From positions 1 through 64,000 of the forward strand of contig JAFRKI010000017.1 in NCBI GenBank assembly GCA_017431825.1: 64,000 bases of DNA, written 5' to 3'. The DNA comes from Erysipelotrichaceae bacterium. Lineage in GTDB: Bacteria; Bacillota_I; Bacilli_A; Erysipelotrichales; Erysipelotrichaceae. Under the pieces are notes generated by a model. The model was not told the DNA's origin and ran no database searches. It saw only the letters and a program-made list of their open reading frames with translations. This document shows positions 2,534-52,164 of the stretch, one piece after another (position 1 is the first letter of the stretch; each line of letters begins with the position of its first letter). Position numbers and translations under genes: made by a program.

Positions 2534-2848
2534 ATGGACGCACATATAAAAAAAGTGTATGTTCCCATGACAGAAACAAGTTTCTATATTTTGCTGTGCC
2601 TTAGAGAACCGAATCATGGATATGGAATAGTCCAGATGGTTAAAGAGATGACAGAAGGGGATATTGTCCTGGCACCGGGAACTATGTATGGAAGCCTGTC
2701 AAAGATGGAAAAAGATGGATTGATCAGATTTGTACGTGAGGAGGAGAAAAGAAAAATCTATTCGATTACGGACCTGGGCAGTGAAGTCCTAAATCTGGAG
2801 ATGAAAAGGATAGAACGCCTTTATAGAAACATGAAGGAGATGAGATGA
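2534..2848 (+). CDS. PadR-family transcriptional regulator
   Basis: A 104-residue winged-helix repressor with the PadR hallmark pattern: SFYILLCLREPNHGYGIVQMV, then the GTMYGSLSKMEKDGLI recognition region and wing (EEEKRKIYSITDLG), ending in a short dimerization helix. AAAGGAGC precedes the ATG. Its stop overlaps the start of the DUF2812 gene by 4 nt (ATGA), the standard two-gene layout in which PadR controls a membrane-associated DUF2812 protein, often under envelope or drug stress. It most likely binds the double palindrome upstream. Confidence 0.9.
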   Translation: MDAHIKKVYVPMTETSFYILLCLREPNHGYGIVQMVKEMTEGDIVLAPGTMYGSLSKMEKDGLIRFVREEEKRKIYSITDLGSEVLNLEMKRIERLYRNMKEMR

Positions 2849-3822
2849 TGGGAAACAATAAAACGGTCTTCAAATTTTTCACGATTCCCCAATATCAGCA
2901 AGAAGAGGATTATCTGAGCGCCATGAATGAAAAGGGGTGGCGTTTTACCCGTGTGACATTCCCGGGCTTTTATCATTTTGAGAAAAGTGAACCTGAACGG
3001 TTCGCCTACAGACTGGATTATAACCAAGAAGGAATCAGAAACAAGGCTGAATATGTCCAGATGTTTTCCGATTGCGGATGGGAGTACATATGTGATTTCG
3101 CAGGTTACAGCTATTTCCGGAAAGAAGGAGTCGTTGGGGAGGAAAGAGAAGAAATCTTCTGTGATAATGCTTCAAGACTTGATATGATGAAACGTGCCTA
3201 TAGAGGAAAGATTATCCCGGTGATCCTACTTTTTGCTTTGGTGATCATCTCGCAGTTATTTATGAATACACTGGGAAATGCTCTAGGAGGTTACAGTGGT
3301 TTTATTGCCATGGAGATTTTGTCCTTCATTTTCCTTGGGCTGGCAATAGTATATCTTGTTTTTTTCTCGATCACGACCGCACATTACTATAAATATGAGA
3401 AACAGATATCGGGCGACAGCTCGGGATTCCGGTTAAATTATGCAGGGGTTTTTGTTCTTATTGTTGCAATGATTGCCATAATAGGAGTGGTTTTCTGGTT
3501 TACATATCGGTGGTCATCGTATACGACTACAGAAATTGATAACGGATACGTCAATGGATACGTCGTGGAGGCAAAAATGCTGAATACCTCCGTGATTAAA
3601 GAGTATGATCTGAAAAAGGGAGATAGCATAGAGTTTCACATTGTTGAGTTAAAACGGGGACATCTGCAATTAAGTGTTACAGAAAACGGAAAGGCCCCGG
3701 TATTCTTCTGTGATGTATACAATTGGGGTTATCATGCCTATACGATACAGAACGATGGGCACTACCTGATCGAAATAACCGGAAAAAGTGTGACAGGTGG
3801 CATAGAAGTAACTATTGAGTAA
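2845..3822 (+). CDS. DUF2812-domain membrane protein
   Basis: 325 residues. The first 100 match the DUF2812 pattern (KTVFKFFTIPQYQQEEDYLSAMNEKGW, then Y.F.K..PE...YRLDYN and a WEYICDFAGYSYFRK segment). Hydrophobic segments near residues 117-140, 148-172 and 198-220 indicate membrane insertion. The C-terminal 100 residues are probably outside the membrane and end in a beta-rich part (HLQLSVTENGKAPVFFCDVY). Translationally coupled to padR. Function unknown; PadR-DUF2812 pairs are repeatedly found together in Firmicutes. Confidence 0.8.
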   Translation: MMGNNKTVFKFFTIPQYQQEEDYLSAMNEKGWRFTRVTFPGFYHFEKSEPERFAYRLDYNQEGIRNKAEYVQMFSDCGWEYICDFAGYSYFRKEGVVGEEREEIFCDNASRLDMMKRAYRGKIIPVILLFALVIISQLFMNTLGNALGGYSGFIAMEILSFIFLGLAIVYLVFFSITTAHYYKYEKQISGDSSGFRLNYAGVFVLIVAMIAIIGVVFWFTYRWSSYTTTEIDNGYVNGYVVEAKMLNTSVIKEYDLKKGDSIEFHIVELKRGHLQLSVTENGKAPVFFCDVYNWGYHAYTIQNDGHYLIEITGKSVTGGIEVTIE

Positions 3823-3864
3823 AGGGCACACTTGGTAAACAAAGAAAACGATTAATATGCAGTA

Positions 3865-3890
3865 GGCGGCGGGGAGCAATCCCCGCCGCC
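3865..3890. terminator. GC-rich hairpin between DUF2812 and tnpV
   Basis: GGCGGCGGGG (3865-3874) pairs perfectly with 3881-3890 around a 6-nt loop. It lies between two convergent genes. No T-tract follows on either strand, so it may be only a structural stop or an element-end hairpin. Confidence 0.45.
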
Positions 3891-3897
3891 TGGTACC

Positions 3898-4275
3898 TTA
3901 TGCGTAAATCAGCTCATGGTTTACGATCTCCATTGCCCTGTTTCGGATGTTGTTCATTCGCTGCACCCACAGCATTTGATCCTGTGCTTTGAGTTGTTCA
4001 GTGACACCCTCACGTTCAGCCATCTGCTGTGTTAGCTGGAGCATCTGCTCCGTTGCCTGTTCGTTGATGTCAGCAAGGTAGATGTTCAGTCTGCCGCTAA
4101 TCAGCAGCTCCGCATATAAGGCCTTGCGCTCCGCCCTGATATATCGCAGGTGCCGCTGCCCTCATATGCCAATGGCCCGTTCTTCTTGAGCCGGTACCGT
4201 CAGGCAGGGGATGTGATAGTCTCCCCGCAGCTCGTACCACAAACCGTTGTTTTCGTCATAAATGATCTTTTCCAT
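3898..4275 (-). pseudogene. TnpV-like transposon protein, interrupted by an in-frame stop
   Basis: On the minus strand an ATG at 4275 behind AGGAGGA opens a reading frame of 125 codons that reads MEKIIYDENNGLWYELRGDY, later GQRHLRYIRAERKALYAELL, and ends MNNIRNRAMEIVNHELIYA. This is the TnpV protein of Tn4451/Tn4453-type serine-recombinase transposons. A TGA at 4162-4164 breaks the frame at a position where I expect Trp (TGG) from my memory of the family, so a single G-to-A change can explain it. No TnpX recombinase remains nearby, so this is a transposon relic. Confidence 0.75.
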
Positions 4276-30913: not shown

Positions 30914-32254
30914 ATGACTAGTGTAGAGTTTTATTATAACGATTTATGGTCCCGGACCTTACAAAGTATCAGTGACAGCAAACAGATCCGTCCAGAGGAA
31001 TTTGATCTATACTTTAACGATTCGAGACTTATCAATATAAGTGAAAAGGGTGCCGAAGTTGTCGTTCCGGCCTTCATTAATTATTCATTGATGCTGCAGC
31101 ATAAGCCCTTGATCGAGGACTGCCTTAAAGAGCTTTTGGGTCAGTATGTTGAAGTGAAGATAATTCTGGAAGAGAATCTCAGTAAGACTCTTAATTCCAT
31201 ACATAATGAGTATTTTGACAAGGAGATCGATCCGAAGCAGAACTTCGGTAATTTTGTCGTAGGTAAGTCAAACATCCAGGCTCAGCTTGCCGCACGTACC
31301 TGTGCCGGTAATCTAGGTCTCGTCTACAATCCTTTATTTATATATGGAAATTCAGGTCTTGGTAAAACACATCTTCTTAACGCCATCGGCAATCAGGTAT
31401 TAAGTGATTTCCCTAATAAGAAGATCGGTTTTATATCAGGGCATGGTTTTATCGAGGCTTTAAACAAAGCCCGCAAAGCAGAAGTTGTAGACAGGTTCAA
31501 GGAATCATTCTATGACCTTGATCTGCTGCTGGTAGATGATATTCAGTTCATTGCCGGTAAGTCCTGGACCCAGGAAGTCTTTTTCAGTATCTTTAATACG
31601 CTGGTCAATGACCGTAAGCAGATCTGTATCACGGCTGACCGTACTCCTGACGATATCAACGGCATGGAAAAGCGTATCATTTCCCGTTTCAATCAGGGTC
31701 TTAACGTCAATATCGAATCTCCGGAATATGAAACCAGTATCAGAATCCTGGAGATGAAGATAGCTAATAACGTTTCCGTAAATGAAAAAGTCGATGAAGA
31801 AGTGCTTTCTTATATTGCGACCAATTTCTCCCAGGATGTACGATCCCTGGAAGGTGCCATCAACAGACTGCTCTTCTATTACATCAATTTCAATTTCGAT
31901 CATGAAGATCATATAACATTAAAACTGGCTTATGAGGCCTTTAAGGATCAGATCACCGAAAACAAGAACGAGCTCAGCATTTCCAAGATCAAAAAGGTAG
32001 TGTGCGATTACTATAATCTGACATCCAAACAGATCGCTTCTTCGACCAGGACCAAAAACATCGCCATACCAAGACATATCGCAATGTATCTGTGCCGGAA
32101 ACTCATCGATGCGCCGTATAAGGAAATAGGCAATGAATTCGGAAAAAGAGATCATTCCACGGTAATAAGTGCCTGTGAAAAGGTGGAAAGTCTTATAAAG
32201 AGCGATCCTTCATATTTAAAAGCTATCGATGAAATAAAGAAGAAGCTGAATTAA
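30914..32254 (+). CDS. dnaA: Chromosomal replication initiator DnaA
   Basis: 446 residues from ATG 30914; the alternative TTG at 30890 coincides with the -10 box, so it is rejected. Domain I about 1-80 (LWSRTLQSISDSKQI...), short linker, AAA+ domain with Walker A GNSGLGKTHLLNAIG near 150 and Walker B LLLVDDIQFI near 208, C-terminal HTH with the DnaA signature around GKRDHSTVISACEKV near 410. Binds TTATCCACA boxes on both sides of its own gene, melts the origin and loads the helicase. Upstream UTR is about 17 nt with a weak AGG. Confidence 0.97.
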   Translation: MTSVEFYYNDLWSRTLQSISDSKQIRPEEFDLYFNDSRLINISEKGAEVVVPAFINYSLMLQHKPLIEDCLKELLGQYVEVKIILEENLSKTLNSIHNEYFDKEIDPKQNFGNFVVGKSNIQAQLAARTCAGNLGLVYNPLFIYGNSGLGKTHLLNAIGNQVLSDFPNKKIGFISGHGFIEALNKARKAEVVDRFKESFYDLDLLLVDDIQFIAGKSWTQEVFFSIFNTLVNDRKQICITADRTPDDINGMEKRIISRFNQGLNVNIESPEYETSIRILEMKIANNVSVNEKVDEEVLSYIATNFSQDVRSLEGAINRLLFYYINFNFDHEDHITLKLAYEAFKDQITENKNELSISKIKKVVCDYYNLTSKQIASSTRTKNIAIPRHIAMYLCRKLIDAPYKEIGNEFGKRDHSTVISACEKVESLIKSDPSYLKAIDEIKKKLN

Positions 32255-48744: not shown

Positions 48745-48890
48745 AGTATATCCATCATAGTATTTCTGTTTTGAAGTTACCCTCATATTTGCCACTATGT
48801 ACGCAAAGGACAGTTGCGTAGGGGCACCCGCCGAATTTTCGAAAATCCCCTAACCTCGTTAACCTCTCTGTATAGGTGCTTGGCGCTAGA
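48745..48890 (-). ncRNA. glmS ribozyme
   Basis: On the minus strand the leader shows the glmS ribozyme core: cleavage site A-GCGCC (48887 down to 48882), then GTTAACGAGG, then TTAGGGG, TTTTCG and AAAATTCGGCGGGTGCCCC, followed by ACTGTCC and GGGTAACTT, in the order of the family. Glucosamine-6-phosphate triggers self-cleavage of the 5' leader and degradation of the glmS mRNA. The 3' limit is approximate. Confidence 0.93.
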
Positions 48891-49046
48891 AGAGAAAATC
48901 TGTATTCACGTCATCAATTTCAAAGAACAACATTAGTCTAATGATATAAGAAAACAGGATCTAATGCAACAACATATAGCCCGGGAAATATGATAAACAT
49001 TAAATCAGGCATCCTCAAAGGCCCTTCTTTGTGATATGATTCTTAT

Positions 49047-49244: not shown

Positions 49245-50528
49245 ATGATTGACATCAAACTGATCAGAGAGAATCCGGAACTGGTAAAGGAAAATATCCG
49301 GAAGAAATTCCAGGACGAGAAACTGATCCTGGTCGACGAAGTAAAGAAACTCGATGAGGAATACCGCGCCGTAAGAGTCAAGGCCGATGAACTCAGGGCC
49401 AGAAGGAACTCGACATCCAAGGAGATCGGCGGGCTGATGAAGCAGGGTCTTAAGGAAGAGGCCGAGAAAGCCAAGGCAGCTGTAGCTCAGATCGGCAAGG
49501 ACATCGAAGACTGCGAAGCCAGGGAACTCGAATATGAAGAAGAGATCAGAAAGAGAATGCTGGTGATCCCGAACATCATCGACGAATCCGTTCCGACCGG
49601 TAAGGACGACTCCGAGAACGTGGAGATCGAACAGTACGGAACCAAGAGAGAATTCGATTTCGAGATCCCGTATCACGTCGATATCATGGAGAATCTCGAC
49701 GGTATCGATCTGGATTCTGCCCGTAAGACGTCCGGCAACGGCTTCTATTATCTGAAGGGCGACATTGCCAGACTGCATTCGTCGATCCTTTCCTATGCCA
49801 GAGACTTCATGGTCGGAAGGGGCTTCACCTATTACATTCCTCCGTTCATGATCAGATCCGACGTCGTGACCGGCGTCATGTCCTTTACGGAAATGGAAAA
49901 CATGATGTATAAGATCGAAGGCGAAGACCTCTATCTTATCGGTACCTCCGAACATTCCATGATCGGCAAGTTCATCGACACCATCCTTGATGAAGCCGAC
50001 CTGCCGCAGACTTTAACGTCTTATTCGCCTTGTTTCCGTAAGGAAGTAGGAGCTCACGGCATCGAAGAAAGAGGCGTTTACCGTATCCATCAGTTTGAGA
50101 AACAGGAAATGATCGTCGTCTGCAAGCCGGAGGATTCCAAAGACTGGTACAACAGGCTCTGGCAGAATACGGTCGATTTCTTCCTGACACTGGACATTCC
50201 GGTAAGAACGCTGGAATGCTGCTCAGGCGATCTGGCCGATCTGAAGGTCAAGTCCTGTGACGTCGAAGCCTGGTCTCCGAGACAGCAGAAGTACTTCGAA
50301 GTCGGATCATGTTCGAATCTGGGCGATGCGCAGGCCAGAAGACTGAAGATCAGGATCAAGGGCGAAAAAGGAAATTACTTTGCCCATACACTGAATAACA
50401 CCTGTGTAGCTCCTCCGAGAATGCTGATCGCCTTCCTGGAAAACAACCTGAACGCAGACGGCTCGATCAATATTCCTAAGGCCCTGCAGCCGTATATGGG
50501 CGGGCAGGAAAAGATCGTAAGAAAATAA
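49245..50528 (+). CDS. serS: Seryl-tRNA synthetase
   Basis: 427 residues from ATG 49245 (TTGGAGGG upstream). N-terminal coiled-coil arm (about 30-100) that holds the tRNA-Ser long arm; catalytic core with GFTYYIPPFMIRSDVV, motif 2 CFRKEVGAHGIEERGVYRIHQFEKQE, and motif 3 NNTCVAPPRMLIAFLENN. Charges tRNA-Ser. Under T-box control. Confidence 0.98.
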   Translation: MIDIKLIRENPELVKENIRKKFQDEKLILVDEVKKLDEEYRAVRVKADELRARRNSTSKEIGGLMKQGLKEEAEKAKAAVAQIGKDIEDCEARELEYEEEIRKRMLVIPNIIDESVPTGKDDSENVEIEQYGTKREFDFEIPYHVDIMENLDGIDLDSARKTSGNGFYYLKGDIARLHSSILSYARDFMVGRGFTYYIPPFMIRSDVVTGVMSFTEMENMMYKIEGEDLYLIGTSEHSMIGKFIDTILDEADLPQTLTSYSPCFRKEVGAHGIEERGVYRIHQFEKQEMIVVCKPEDSKDWYNRLWQNTVDFFLTLDIPVRTLECCSGDLADLKVKSCDVEAWSPRQQKYFEVGSCSNLGDAQARRLKIRIKGEKGNYFAHTLNNTCVAPPRMLIAFLENNLNADGSINIPKALQPYMGGQEKIVRK

Positions 50529-50543
50529 ACATCCGTACAAGAA

Positions 50544-50559
50544 TGTTTCACGTGAAACA
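50544..50559. other. parS site (perfect), overlapping the serS terminator
   Basis: TGTTTCACGTGAAACA is the exact Bacillus-type parS consensus bound by ParB/Spo0J. It is extended to a 24-26 bp palindrome (AAGAATG...CATTCTT) and followed by TTTTT, so it can also terminate serS transcription. Confidence 0.92.
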
Positions 50560-50609
50560 TTCTTTTTATGAAGAAGGCGCAAGCGTGGTAGACTATAGGC
50601 GATGCGTGA

Positions 50610-50625
50610 CGTTTCACGTGAAACA
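50610..50625. other. parS site, upstream of the first HAD gene
   Basis: CGTTTCACGTGAAACA, one mismatch to the consensus, ends 13 nt before the ATG at 50639. Confidence 0.88.
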
Positions 50626-50638
50626 ATGGGGAGCAAAG

Positions 50639-51310
50639 ATGATAAAAGGAGTGATATTCGATTTTAACGGAACGCTGTATTTCGATGAGGAAATGGCTGA
50701 AGGAGCCTTTCATCACCTTTTCAGGGAAATGGGCTATCCGGAAGACAACTTCACGGAAATGTTCCTCTATGCCCGTCGCAACCCCTTTTCCGCCTTTCTG
50801 TTAAAGGTCGGCAAGGAACTGAACCGGACGTATACGGAAGCGGAGAAGGAATACTACATCGGCAGACTCAGTCATCATTACCGTAAGAGCTGCCGTGAAA
50901 GCGGACAGAACGGACCGGCTCCTGGTGCGGCGGAACTGCTGGATCAGCTGAAAGAAAAGGGCTATAAGCTCAATCTCTGCACCGCGACGGTGGAAGAGAC
51001 CGTCGATTTCTATTATGAACATACCGGATTGGGAAGATGGTTCGACAGAAGCCTGACGGCCTTTGACGACGGCGTGACCCGCGACAAGAAGGAGATGTAC
51101 AGGCAGGCGGCCGAAAACATCGGATTGGATCCCAAAGACTGTCTGGTCTTTGAAGATTCGCTCAACTGCATAAATGATGCGATAACGGTCGGATACGAAA
51201 GGTTCATCTACGTAAACCACTACGGACATGAGAAGGCGGCACAGAAAGAAGTCCTGCAGGAGATAAAGGACTATCATGAGCTCGACCGTTCCCTGTTTAC
51301 GGAAGAGTAA
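50639..51310 (+). CDS. HAD-superfamily hydrolase, first of a tandem pair
   Basis: 223 residues from ATG 50639 (GGGGAGC upstream; earlier in-frame codons would translate the parS sites and are not a start). HAD motif I FDFNGTLYFDEE: the usual second Asp (DxD) is Asn, the nucleophile Asp is retained. The cap holds FREMGYPEDNFTEMFLYARR. Motif III Lys and motif IV LVFEDSLNCINDAITVGY are present. Resembles beta-phosphoglucomutase/phosphatase types. About 40 percent like the next gene, clearly its duplicate. Confidence 0.85.
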   Translation: MIKGVIFDFNGTLYFDEEMAEGAFHHLFREMGYPEDNFTEMFLYARRNPFSAFLLKVGKELNRTYTEAEKEYYIGRLSHHYRKSCRESGQNGPAPGAAELLDQLKEKGYKLNLCTATVEETVDFYYEHTGLGRWFDRSLTAFDDGVTRDKKEMYRQAAENIGLDPKDCLVFEDSLNCINDAITVGYERFIYVNHYGHEKAAQKEVLQEIKDYHELDRSLFTEE

Positions 51311-51369
51311 CGCATCTGTGCTGATATATGAGCAGACAGAGAAGACCGCAGGTCTAAAGTCAAAAAGAA

Positions 51370-51385
51370 CGTTTCACGTGAAACA
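51370..51385. other. parS site, upstream of the second HAD gene
   Basis: CGTTTCACGTGAAACA ends 13 nt before the ATG at 51399, the same spacing as in the first HAD gene, so it was copied with it. Confidence 0.88.
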
Positions 51386-51398
51386 TGAAGGAGCGAGG

Positions 51399-52067
51399 AT
51401 GATAAAAGGGGTTATATTTGATTACAACAACACGCTGTACTTCGATATGGATATCGCCAAAGCGGCATTCCGCCAGCTGTTTAAGGAAGCTGGCTGCGAC
51501 GAAAGCGAGTTTGAGGACTTCTATACGACAATCTGCCGCTCGCCGAGCTCGGTGGCGGTAAAACTGCTAAGCGAGTTTGCGGGCAGGGAATTCAGCAAAG
51601 AAGAAGCACGCCATTACACCGGCCAGATCGATGTCTATTATCAGCAGGGGTGCATCGATATGCATCGTGACCGGCTGGCTGAGGGAGCCGAAGAACTGTT
51701 CGATTATCTTATCAGAAACGGCTATAAGATAAACATCTGCACCGCGACCGTTGATTTCAGCGTGGATTTCTATTTCCGGAACACCCGCCTGGATAGATGG
51801 TTCAAAAGAGAGCTGGTCGCCAACGATGACGGACACATCAGCAATAAAGTGGAAATGTACAGGAAAGCAGCCGAAAGGATCGGTGTCGAAGCCAAGGACT
51901 GTCTGGTATTCGAAGATTCTCCTAAAGGCATCGAAGATGCCATGAAAGCCGGCTTTAAGCAGTTCGTTTATGTGAATCATTATCATAATCCGAGCATAGG
52001 CCTCAAGGAGATCCTGCAGGAGATCGAAGACTTTACACAGCTGGACTATTCAATATTTGAACGATAA
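51399..52067 (+). CDS. HAD-superfamily hydrolase, second of a tandem pair
   Basis: 222 residues from ATG 51399 (AAGGAGCGAGG upstream). Motif I FDYNNTLYFDMD: Asp nucleophile kept, second acid replaced by Asn as in the first copy, followed by Asn-Thr. Motif IV DCLVFEDSPKGIEDAMKAG. The shared text MIKGVIFD.N.TLYFD and TATV(E/D)..VDFY shows recent duplication with divergence. The missing second Asp suggests altered acid-base chemistry or a different phosphotransfer substrate. Confidence 0.85.
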   Translation: MIKGVIFDYNNTLYFDMDIAKAAFRQLFKEAGCDESEFEDFYTTICRSPSSVAVKLLSEFAGREFSKEEARHYTGQIDVYYQQGCIDMHRDRLAEGAEELFDYLIRNGYKINICTATVDFSVDFYFRNTRLDRWFKRELVANDDGHISNKVEMYRKAAERIGVEAKDCLVFEDSPKGIEDAMKAGFKQFVYVNHYHNPSIGLKEILQEIEDFTQLDYSIFER

Positions 52068-52077: not shown

Positions 52078-52082
52078 AACGA

Positions 52083-52158
52083 TGCGCAACAGATATGTGC
52101 TAATCTGGTCAGGACGGGAACGTAGCAGCCATACGAACCTCTGTCTGTGTGCGCTTTT
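52083..52158 (+). ncRNA. ffs: Signal recognition particle RNA, small bacterial type
   Basis: GGTCAGG...GGGAA...AGCAGCC is the universal SRP RNA domain IV core (about 52108-52133). The ends pair (GCGCA-CAGA with TCTG-TGTGTGCGC) and TTTTTATTT follows as terminator. Total about 75 nt, so there is no Alu domain, unlike Bacillus 6S-like scRNA. Partner of Ffh. Confidence 0.9.
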
Positions 52159-52164
52159 TATTTG

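What the first reader, a model, noticed from the sequence alone, without database searches (positions are those of the whole stretch)
50541..51401. parS sites duplicated together with tandem HAD genes
Three parS sites lie within 850 nt. Two end exactly 13 nt before the ATGs of paralogous HAD genes, so a unit of parS plus HAD was duplicated. ParB loaded here could affect transcription of the HAD genes. ParA/ParB genes are not in the window.
Basis: seen in the sequence. Interest (0 to 1): 0.65.

Follow-up and report, generated by a model that had tools for sequence, protein, structure and literature searches.

The report
Centromere sites built into gene junctions
The only three chromosome-segregation sites found in this gut bacterium's genome sit at gene junctions next to two duplicated enzyme genes; the first is part of the transcription stop signal of the gene before it, a fixed layout in relatives, but the sites belong to the place rather than to the enzyme genes.

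Summary
Three parS sites lie at 50544-50559, 50610-50625 and 51370-51385. The last two each end exactly 13 nt before the ATG of a HAD gene. They are the only parS sites in the 1.68-Mb assembly, 19 kb from dnaA. The genome has soj/parB and noc on another contig, and ParB has the parS-type specificity residues.

Comparison of about 30 same-genus genomes changes the interpretation. The interval serS-(variable genes)-SRP RNA-tadA carries parS at its gene junctions across the genus. The first site directly follows the serS stop codon. It forms the upper stem of a covarying hairpin followed by a T-rich tail, so it is probably also the serS terminator. The next sites abut the start of whatever gene follows: usually HAD, but also GNAT and membrane-protein genes. 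The two nearest relatives keep parS but lack HAD. The window's two HADs are sister paralogues, so a lineage-specific duplication of a parS-HAD module is the simplest reading. The close spacing is nevertheless a property of the slot, not of HAD. In several relatives parS replaces the -35/spacer or overlaps the start codon, so ParB repression is plausible, but untested and doubtful given B. subtilis. Verdict: partly supported.

The parts
49245..50528 (+). serS (seryl-tRNA synthetase)
   Evidence: ORF; named from recognised sequence and the conserved serS-SRP RNA-tadA-dnaX-recR order; conserved neighbour in relatives
50544..50559 (.). parS1, 15 nt after the serS stop
50539..50567 (+). putative serS intrinsic terminator: 26-nt perfect palindrome with parS1 as its upper stem, plus T-run
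   Evidence: folds at -12.2 kcal/mol for 50534-50570, z -4.7; flanking pairs covary in relatives; not picked up by the generic terminator scan
50610..50625 (.). parS2, in the leader of HAD1, 13 nt before its ATG
50639..51310 (+). HAD1, HAD-IA family protein with motif I DFNGT
51370..51385 (.). parS3, in the leader of HAD2, 13 nt before its ATG
51399..52067 (+). HAD2, paralogue of HAD1 with motif I DYNNT
52078..52163 (+). SRP RNA (small bacterial type); right-hand border of the variable slot
   Evidence: Rfam RF00169
52177..52623 (+). tadA (tRNA adenosine deaminase)
   Evidence: ORF, conserved neighbour
31229..31708 (+). DnaA domain (dnaA), marker of oriC, 19 kb from parS1
   Evidence: PF00308, E 9.6e-55

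Best explanation
This is the chromosome's parS centromere cluster. ParB, encoded with Soj and Noc on another contig, loads here about 19 kb from dnaA, forms the partition complex and marks the origin for segregation (established biology of ParABS; binding here is inferred). In this genus the cluster lies in a variable-gene slot between serS and the SRP RNA/tadA genes, with sites at the gene junctions. parS1 is the upper stem of the serS terminator. parS2 and parS3 lie in the leaders of two HAD genes that arose by a lineage-specific tandem duplication of a parS-HAD module, possibly by unequal exchange between parS-containing repeats. The sites are maintained for segregation. Any damping of HAD transcription by bound ParB is a side effect or a secondary adaptation and is not shown.
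For: Perfect 14-bp parS cores occur only here in the genome. ParB has R173/G201-type residues (RIKG), the parS class, whereas the paralogue has QKKR, the Noc class (criteria from PMC7383237). Same-genus genomes hold parS in the same serS-tadA interval, in the named public assemblies as well. Six flanking pairs of parS1 all show two-sided changes and 88% of cells are paired, 0 of 500 shuffles, with a T-rich tail; parS2 shows none of this. HAD1 and HAD2 are sisters at 100/99. HAD-less relatives keep parS. Gene content between the sites changes: HAD, GNAT, several membrane proteins, or nothing.
Against: No ParB binding data exist. The genome is a 94%-complete draft, so further parS sites could be missing. 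Outside the 16-bp site and the SD the two HAD leaders share little sequence, so joint duplication of parS with HAD is inferred rather than read directly. The generic terminator scan did not list the parS1 hairpin. No promoter of 9 of 12 or better was found for either HAD upstream of its start on the coding strand.
Confidence: 0.8

Rival explanations
1. parS2 and parS3 are true operators. ParB bound there represses (or times) HAD transcription, so HAD expression follows the state of the partition complex, for example a brief release when the locus is replicated. The parS-HAD unit is then kept as a regulatory module.
For: parS ends 10-22 nt before the start in 16 of 17 junctions of at least 60 nt, against 2.4 expected by random placement (ignores shared ancestry). 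Nine HAD genes have a leaderless-type -10 5-9 nt before ATG against 1.7 expected, and in most of these parS occupies the -35/spacer. Five or six others have parS over the start codon. 19 of 21 HADs of this group in named assemblies have parS starting within 50 nt upstream, against 0 of 59 HAD relatives elsewhere. P. aeruginosa ParB represses the promoters next to parS3 and parS4 (PMC5521831).
Against: The same spacing is found before unrelated genes. The position relative to -10 and SD is not fixed: upstream, inside or downstream of the promoter. The nearest relatives keep the sites without HAD. In B. subtilis loss of Spo0J does not change genes next to parS (PMC7022226).
Confidence: 0.3
2. 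The palindromes are binding sites of an ordinary transcription factor of the HAD genes, not parS.
For: They are palindromic and lie in leaders of two paralogues.
Against: Exact match to the parS core; no other copies in the genome; one copy sits in a terminator, not a promoter; the same site recurs in 56 of 61 relatives, including sites inside holB and after recR/rsmI in the sister family; a cognate ParB is present.
Confidence: 0.03
3. The parS sequences in the HAD leaders act as RNA hairpins, as 5' stabilisers or translation control, not as DNA sites.
For: parS is self-complementary, and parS1 does act as an RNA-level hairpin by covariation.
Against: The window leaders fold no better than shuffles (z -0.03 and -1.4). 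Pairs flanking parS2 show no covariation. In leaderless-type relatives the site is not transcribed with HAD (inference).
Confidence: 0.05
4. The parS-gene-parS arrangement is a cassette system: parS repeats serve as recombination joints through which genes enter, leave and duplicate in the slot.
For: Gene content turns over between parS sites. HAD is flanked by parS on both sides in G014, G031, G024, G030, G015 and G032. In G005 and G017 a GNAT reading frame runs through parS (encoding FHVKQ or FHVKH) into HAD, while in G002 GNAT ends right after MFHVKH. G025 has a second tandem HAD pair with parS between.
Against: 16-26 bp is short for homologous recombination. No recombinase was recognised in the slot. 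Insertion next to a pre-existing parS cluster would leave the same pattern.
Confidence: 0.2

Closest known systems
Origin-proximal parS clusters of ParABS (B. subtilis Spo0J/parS, P. aeruginosa parS1-4)
   Same: Same 16-bp site, same kind of ParB and ParA, several sites close together near the origin
   Different: All sites found in the genome lie in one 842-bp interval at gene junctions; the first is part of a terminator hairpin
P. aeruginosa parS3/parS4 upstream of PA0011/PA0013 (PMC5521831)
   Same: Intergenic parS just upstream of genes, where bound ParB represses
   Different: Different genes and phylum; no expression data here; the spacing here applies to whatever gene follows the site
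S. pneumoniae parS(-1.6) and comCDE (reviewed in PMC7022226)
   Same: A single parS in a Firmicute affects expression of a nearby operon
   Different: There the promoter is 5 kb away; here parS abuts the start codon
Noc and its NBS sites
   Same: A Noc paralogue is encoded beside soj-parB
   Different: The window sites are parS, not NBS; no exact NBS 14-mer is in the genome

Membership tests
Chromosomal parS site | 16-bp palindrome TGTTNCACGTGNAACA | tested here: met
   15-16 of 16 match to TGTTTCACGTGAAACA
Chromosomal parS site | Near oriC | tested here: met
   19 kb from dnaA on the same contig
Chromosomal parS site | Cognate ParB with parS-type specificity residues | tested here: met
   soj-parB on C9; R-I-K-G at 173/179/184/201 by alignment to B. 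subtilis Spo0J
Chromosomal parS site | Bound by ParB in the cell | not testable with these tools
   needs ChIP-seq or in vitro binding
Intrinsic terminator (parS1) | Stable stem-loop after a stop codon | tested here: met
   -12.2 kcal/mol, z -4.7; two-sided changes in all six flanking pairs
Intrinsic terminator (parS1) | U-run after the stem | tested here: met
   mean 7.5 T in the 12 nt after parS1, 3.4 after parS2; T-run 50563-50567 in the window; the generic scan missed it
Intrinsic terminator (parS1) | Transcripts end there | not testable with these tools
   needs Term-seq
ParB-repressed gene (PA0011/PA0013 type) | parS within the promoter or leader | tested here: met
   13 nt before both ATGs; in most relatives 9-25 nt before or overlapping the start
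ParB-repressed gene (PA0011/PA0013 type) | Expression rises without ParB or with mutated parS | not testable with these tools
   needs reporter or RNA data
HAD-IA phosphatase | Motif I DxDx(T/V), two aspartates | tested here: not met
   second Asp is Asn in all 26 aligned family members (D8, N10, T12 invariant)
HAD superfamily fold | Matches HAD profiles | tested here: met
   PF00702 E 6.6e-23 and 1.3e-15; profile matches PDB 6w04 at 7.4e-42

The most novel reading that the evidence does not exclude
Genus-wide, the centromere is written into expression signals. One parS is the serS terminator stem, and others are promoter or leader operators through which ParB holds down a set of exchangeable accessory genes (HAD, GNAT, membrane proteins), tying their expression to the partition complex.
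Probability: 0.25. Interest if true: 0.6.

Novelty: new variant of a known kind. Interest (0 to 1): 0.4.

Why it matters
It shows, with covariation, a centromere site that probably also serves as a transcription terminator. It also gives a natural series of species in which parS sits before, inside or after promoters of different genes. That makes the open question of when chromosomal ParB affects neighbouring transcription directly testable. It corrects the idea that parS is tied to HAD genes.

Tried and rejected
A link specific to HAD was rejected because of the HAD-less relatives and because other genes stand at the same spacing. A shared ancestral tandem HAD duplication with G025 was rejected: the G000 pair are sisters, and the G025 pair are not each other's sisters in the tree, though deep forks are weak. 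RNA hairpin function of parS2/parS3 was rejected. A sigma-70 promoter scan of the window gave nothing convincing upstream of the HAD genes on the coding strand. Two structure-count calls failed on string length, and a first terminator alignment had one mis-registered row and was redone. A literature search for parS used as a terminator found nothing relevant.

Full report
What is there. parS1 (TGTTTCACGTGAAACA, 50544-50559) starts 15 nt after the serS stop. parS2 and parS3 (both CGTTTCACGTGAAACA, 50610-50625 and 51370-51385) each end 13 nt before an ATG. They are the only sites with fewer than two mismatches to GTTTCACGTGAAAC in the 1.68-Mb, 94%-complete assembly. dnaA is 19 kb away on the same contig. 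The partition genes are on another contig, in the classical order rsmG-noc-soj-parB. By alignment to B. subtilis Spo0J and to Noc, the second ParB-like protein carries R-I-K-G and the first Q-K-K-R at the four specificity positions. These are the parS and NBS classes defined in PMC7383237. That these are parS sites is therefore well supported; binding itself is inferred.

The HAD genes. Both are HAD-IA-like (PF00702/PF13419; no NCBIfam equivalog reached its cut-off) and 47% identical. They are sisters with 100/99 support in a tree of 43 relatives, so the pair arose in this lineage. Single-HAD relatives typically show serS-parS-parS-HAD. With a parS at the same spacing before each copy here, duplication of a parS-HAD module is the simplest reading. 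Outside the site and the SD the two leaders share little, so this remains an inference.

Comparison within the genus. About 30 same-genus assemblies (uncultured Erysipelotrichaceae, mostly from ruminant guts, by the public records) carry parS in the interval from serS to the SRP RNA/tadA genes. Among the named assemblies, all 21 HADs of this group have parS in the same locus, 19 of them starting within 50 nt upstream of the HAD match, and none of the other 59 HAD relatives fetched has one (many of these assemblies are the same as those in the genome search). In 16 of 17 junctions of at least 60 nt the last parS ends 10-22 nt before the start codon, against 2.4 expected for random placement. 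That test ignores shared ancestry, but by eye the sequences between parS and ATG have diverged almost completely.

The spacing is not about HAD. GNAT genes (9 and 14 nt in G002 and G009) and small membrane-protein genes (11-25 nt) start just after a parS in the same slot. The nearest relatives by full-length serS identity, G002 (89%) and G001 (86%), keep parS but have GNAT or no gene between the sites. parS also runs into reading frames at their ends: proteins in the slot end in FHVKH or VSRET, and some HADs begin MFHVKQ or MFHVEH with the start codon inside parS. In G005 and G017 a GNAT frame continues through parS into HAD. In the sister family of the order, parS lies inside holB or just after the stop codons of recR or rsmI, not before starts (gene names from sequence recognition).

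parS1 as terminator. In 22 genomes the six base pairs immediately outside parS1 are 88% paired. All six show two-sided changes and 23 cells are changed on both sides (0 of 500 shuffles), and sliding the partner by one column destroys it. The same test on parS2 gives 38% and nothing above shuffles. A T-rich tail follows parS1 (7.5 T of 12) but not parS2 (3.4). The window hairpin folds at z -4.7. parS1 therefore appears to double as the upper stem of the serS terminator. The generic scan missed it, and no transcript data are available. Some parS sites after stop codons in the sister family have similarly long arms and T-runs.

Does ParB regulate HAD? The geometry allows it. In nine HAD genes a -10 box stands 5-9 nt before the ATG (1.7 expected), and in most of them parS fills the -35/spacer; in others parS is in the leader or over the start codon. 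P. aeruginosa ParB represses promoters next to parS3 and parS4. Against this, the position relative to promoter elements is not fixed, the same sites precede unrelated genes, and B. subtilis genes next to parS do not respond to loss of Spo0J. I put direct regulation at about 0.3.

Conclusion. The finding is real and partly correctly read. It is an origin-proximal parS cluster, ordinary in kind, with an unusual genus-wide layout. The sites are kept at the junctions of a slot whose genes change. One site doubles as a terminator, and in this genome the HAD module next to one site has most likely been duplicated together with it.

Noticed in passing
50639-51310 and 51399-52067; alignment A1: The second aspartate of HAD motif I (general acid/base) is Asn in all 26 family members (DFNGT, DYNGT or DYNNT). 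A large DxN HAD subfamily exists in gut bacteria of several phyla (503 relatives by one motif), so ordinary phosphatase activity is doubtful.
   Followed up: partly
L053:3825-5045 and L057 (reverse-complement coordinates 2835-4055): GNAT and HAD are one open reading frame in two relatives, and the linker FHVKQ/FHVKH is encoded by parS itself.
   Followed up: partly
L073-L079, L010-L033: In the sister family of the order parS lies at a fixed place inside holB, about 760-775 nt from its start, and right after stop codons of recR or rsmI.
   Followed up: partly
48746-48898 (-): glmS ribozyme upstream of the glmS gene (Rfam RF00234).
   Followed up: no
L071:7813-10216 (contig C9): noc-soj-parB operon. 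No exact NBS 14-mer is found in the genome and only one with a single mismatch, so this Noc may recognise a variant site.
   Followed up: no
L040: A second contig of relative G004 without serS or HAD carries three further parS sites; that assembly is about 6% contaminated, so it may be from another organism.
   Followed up: no
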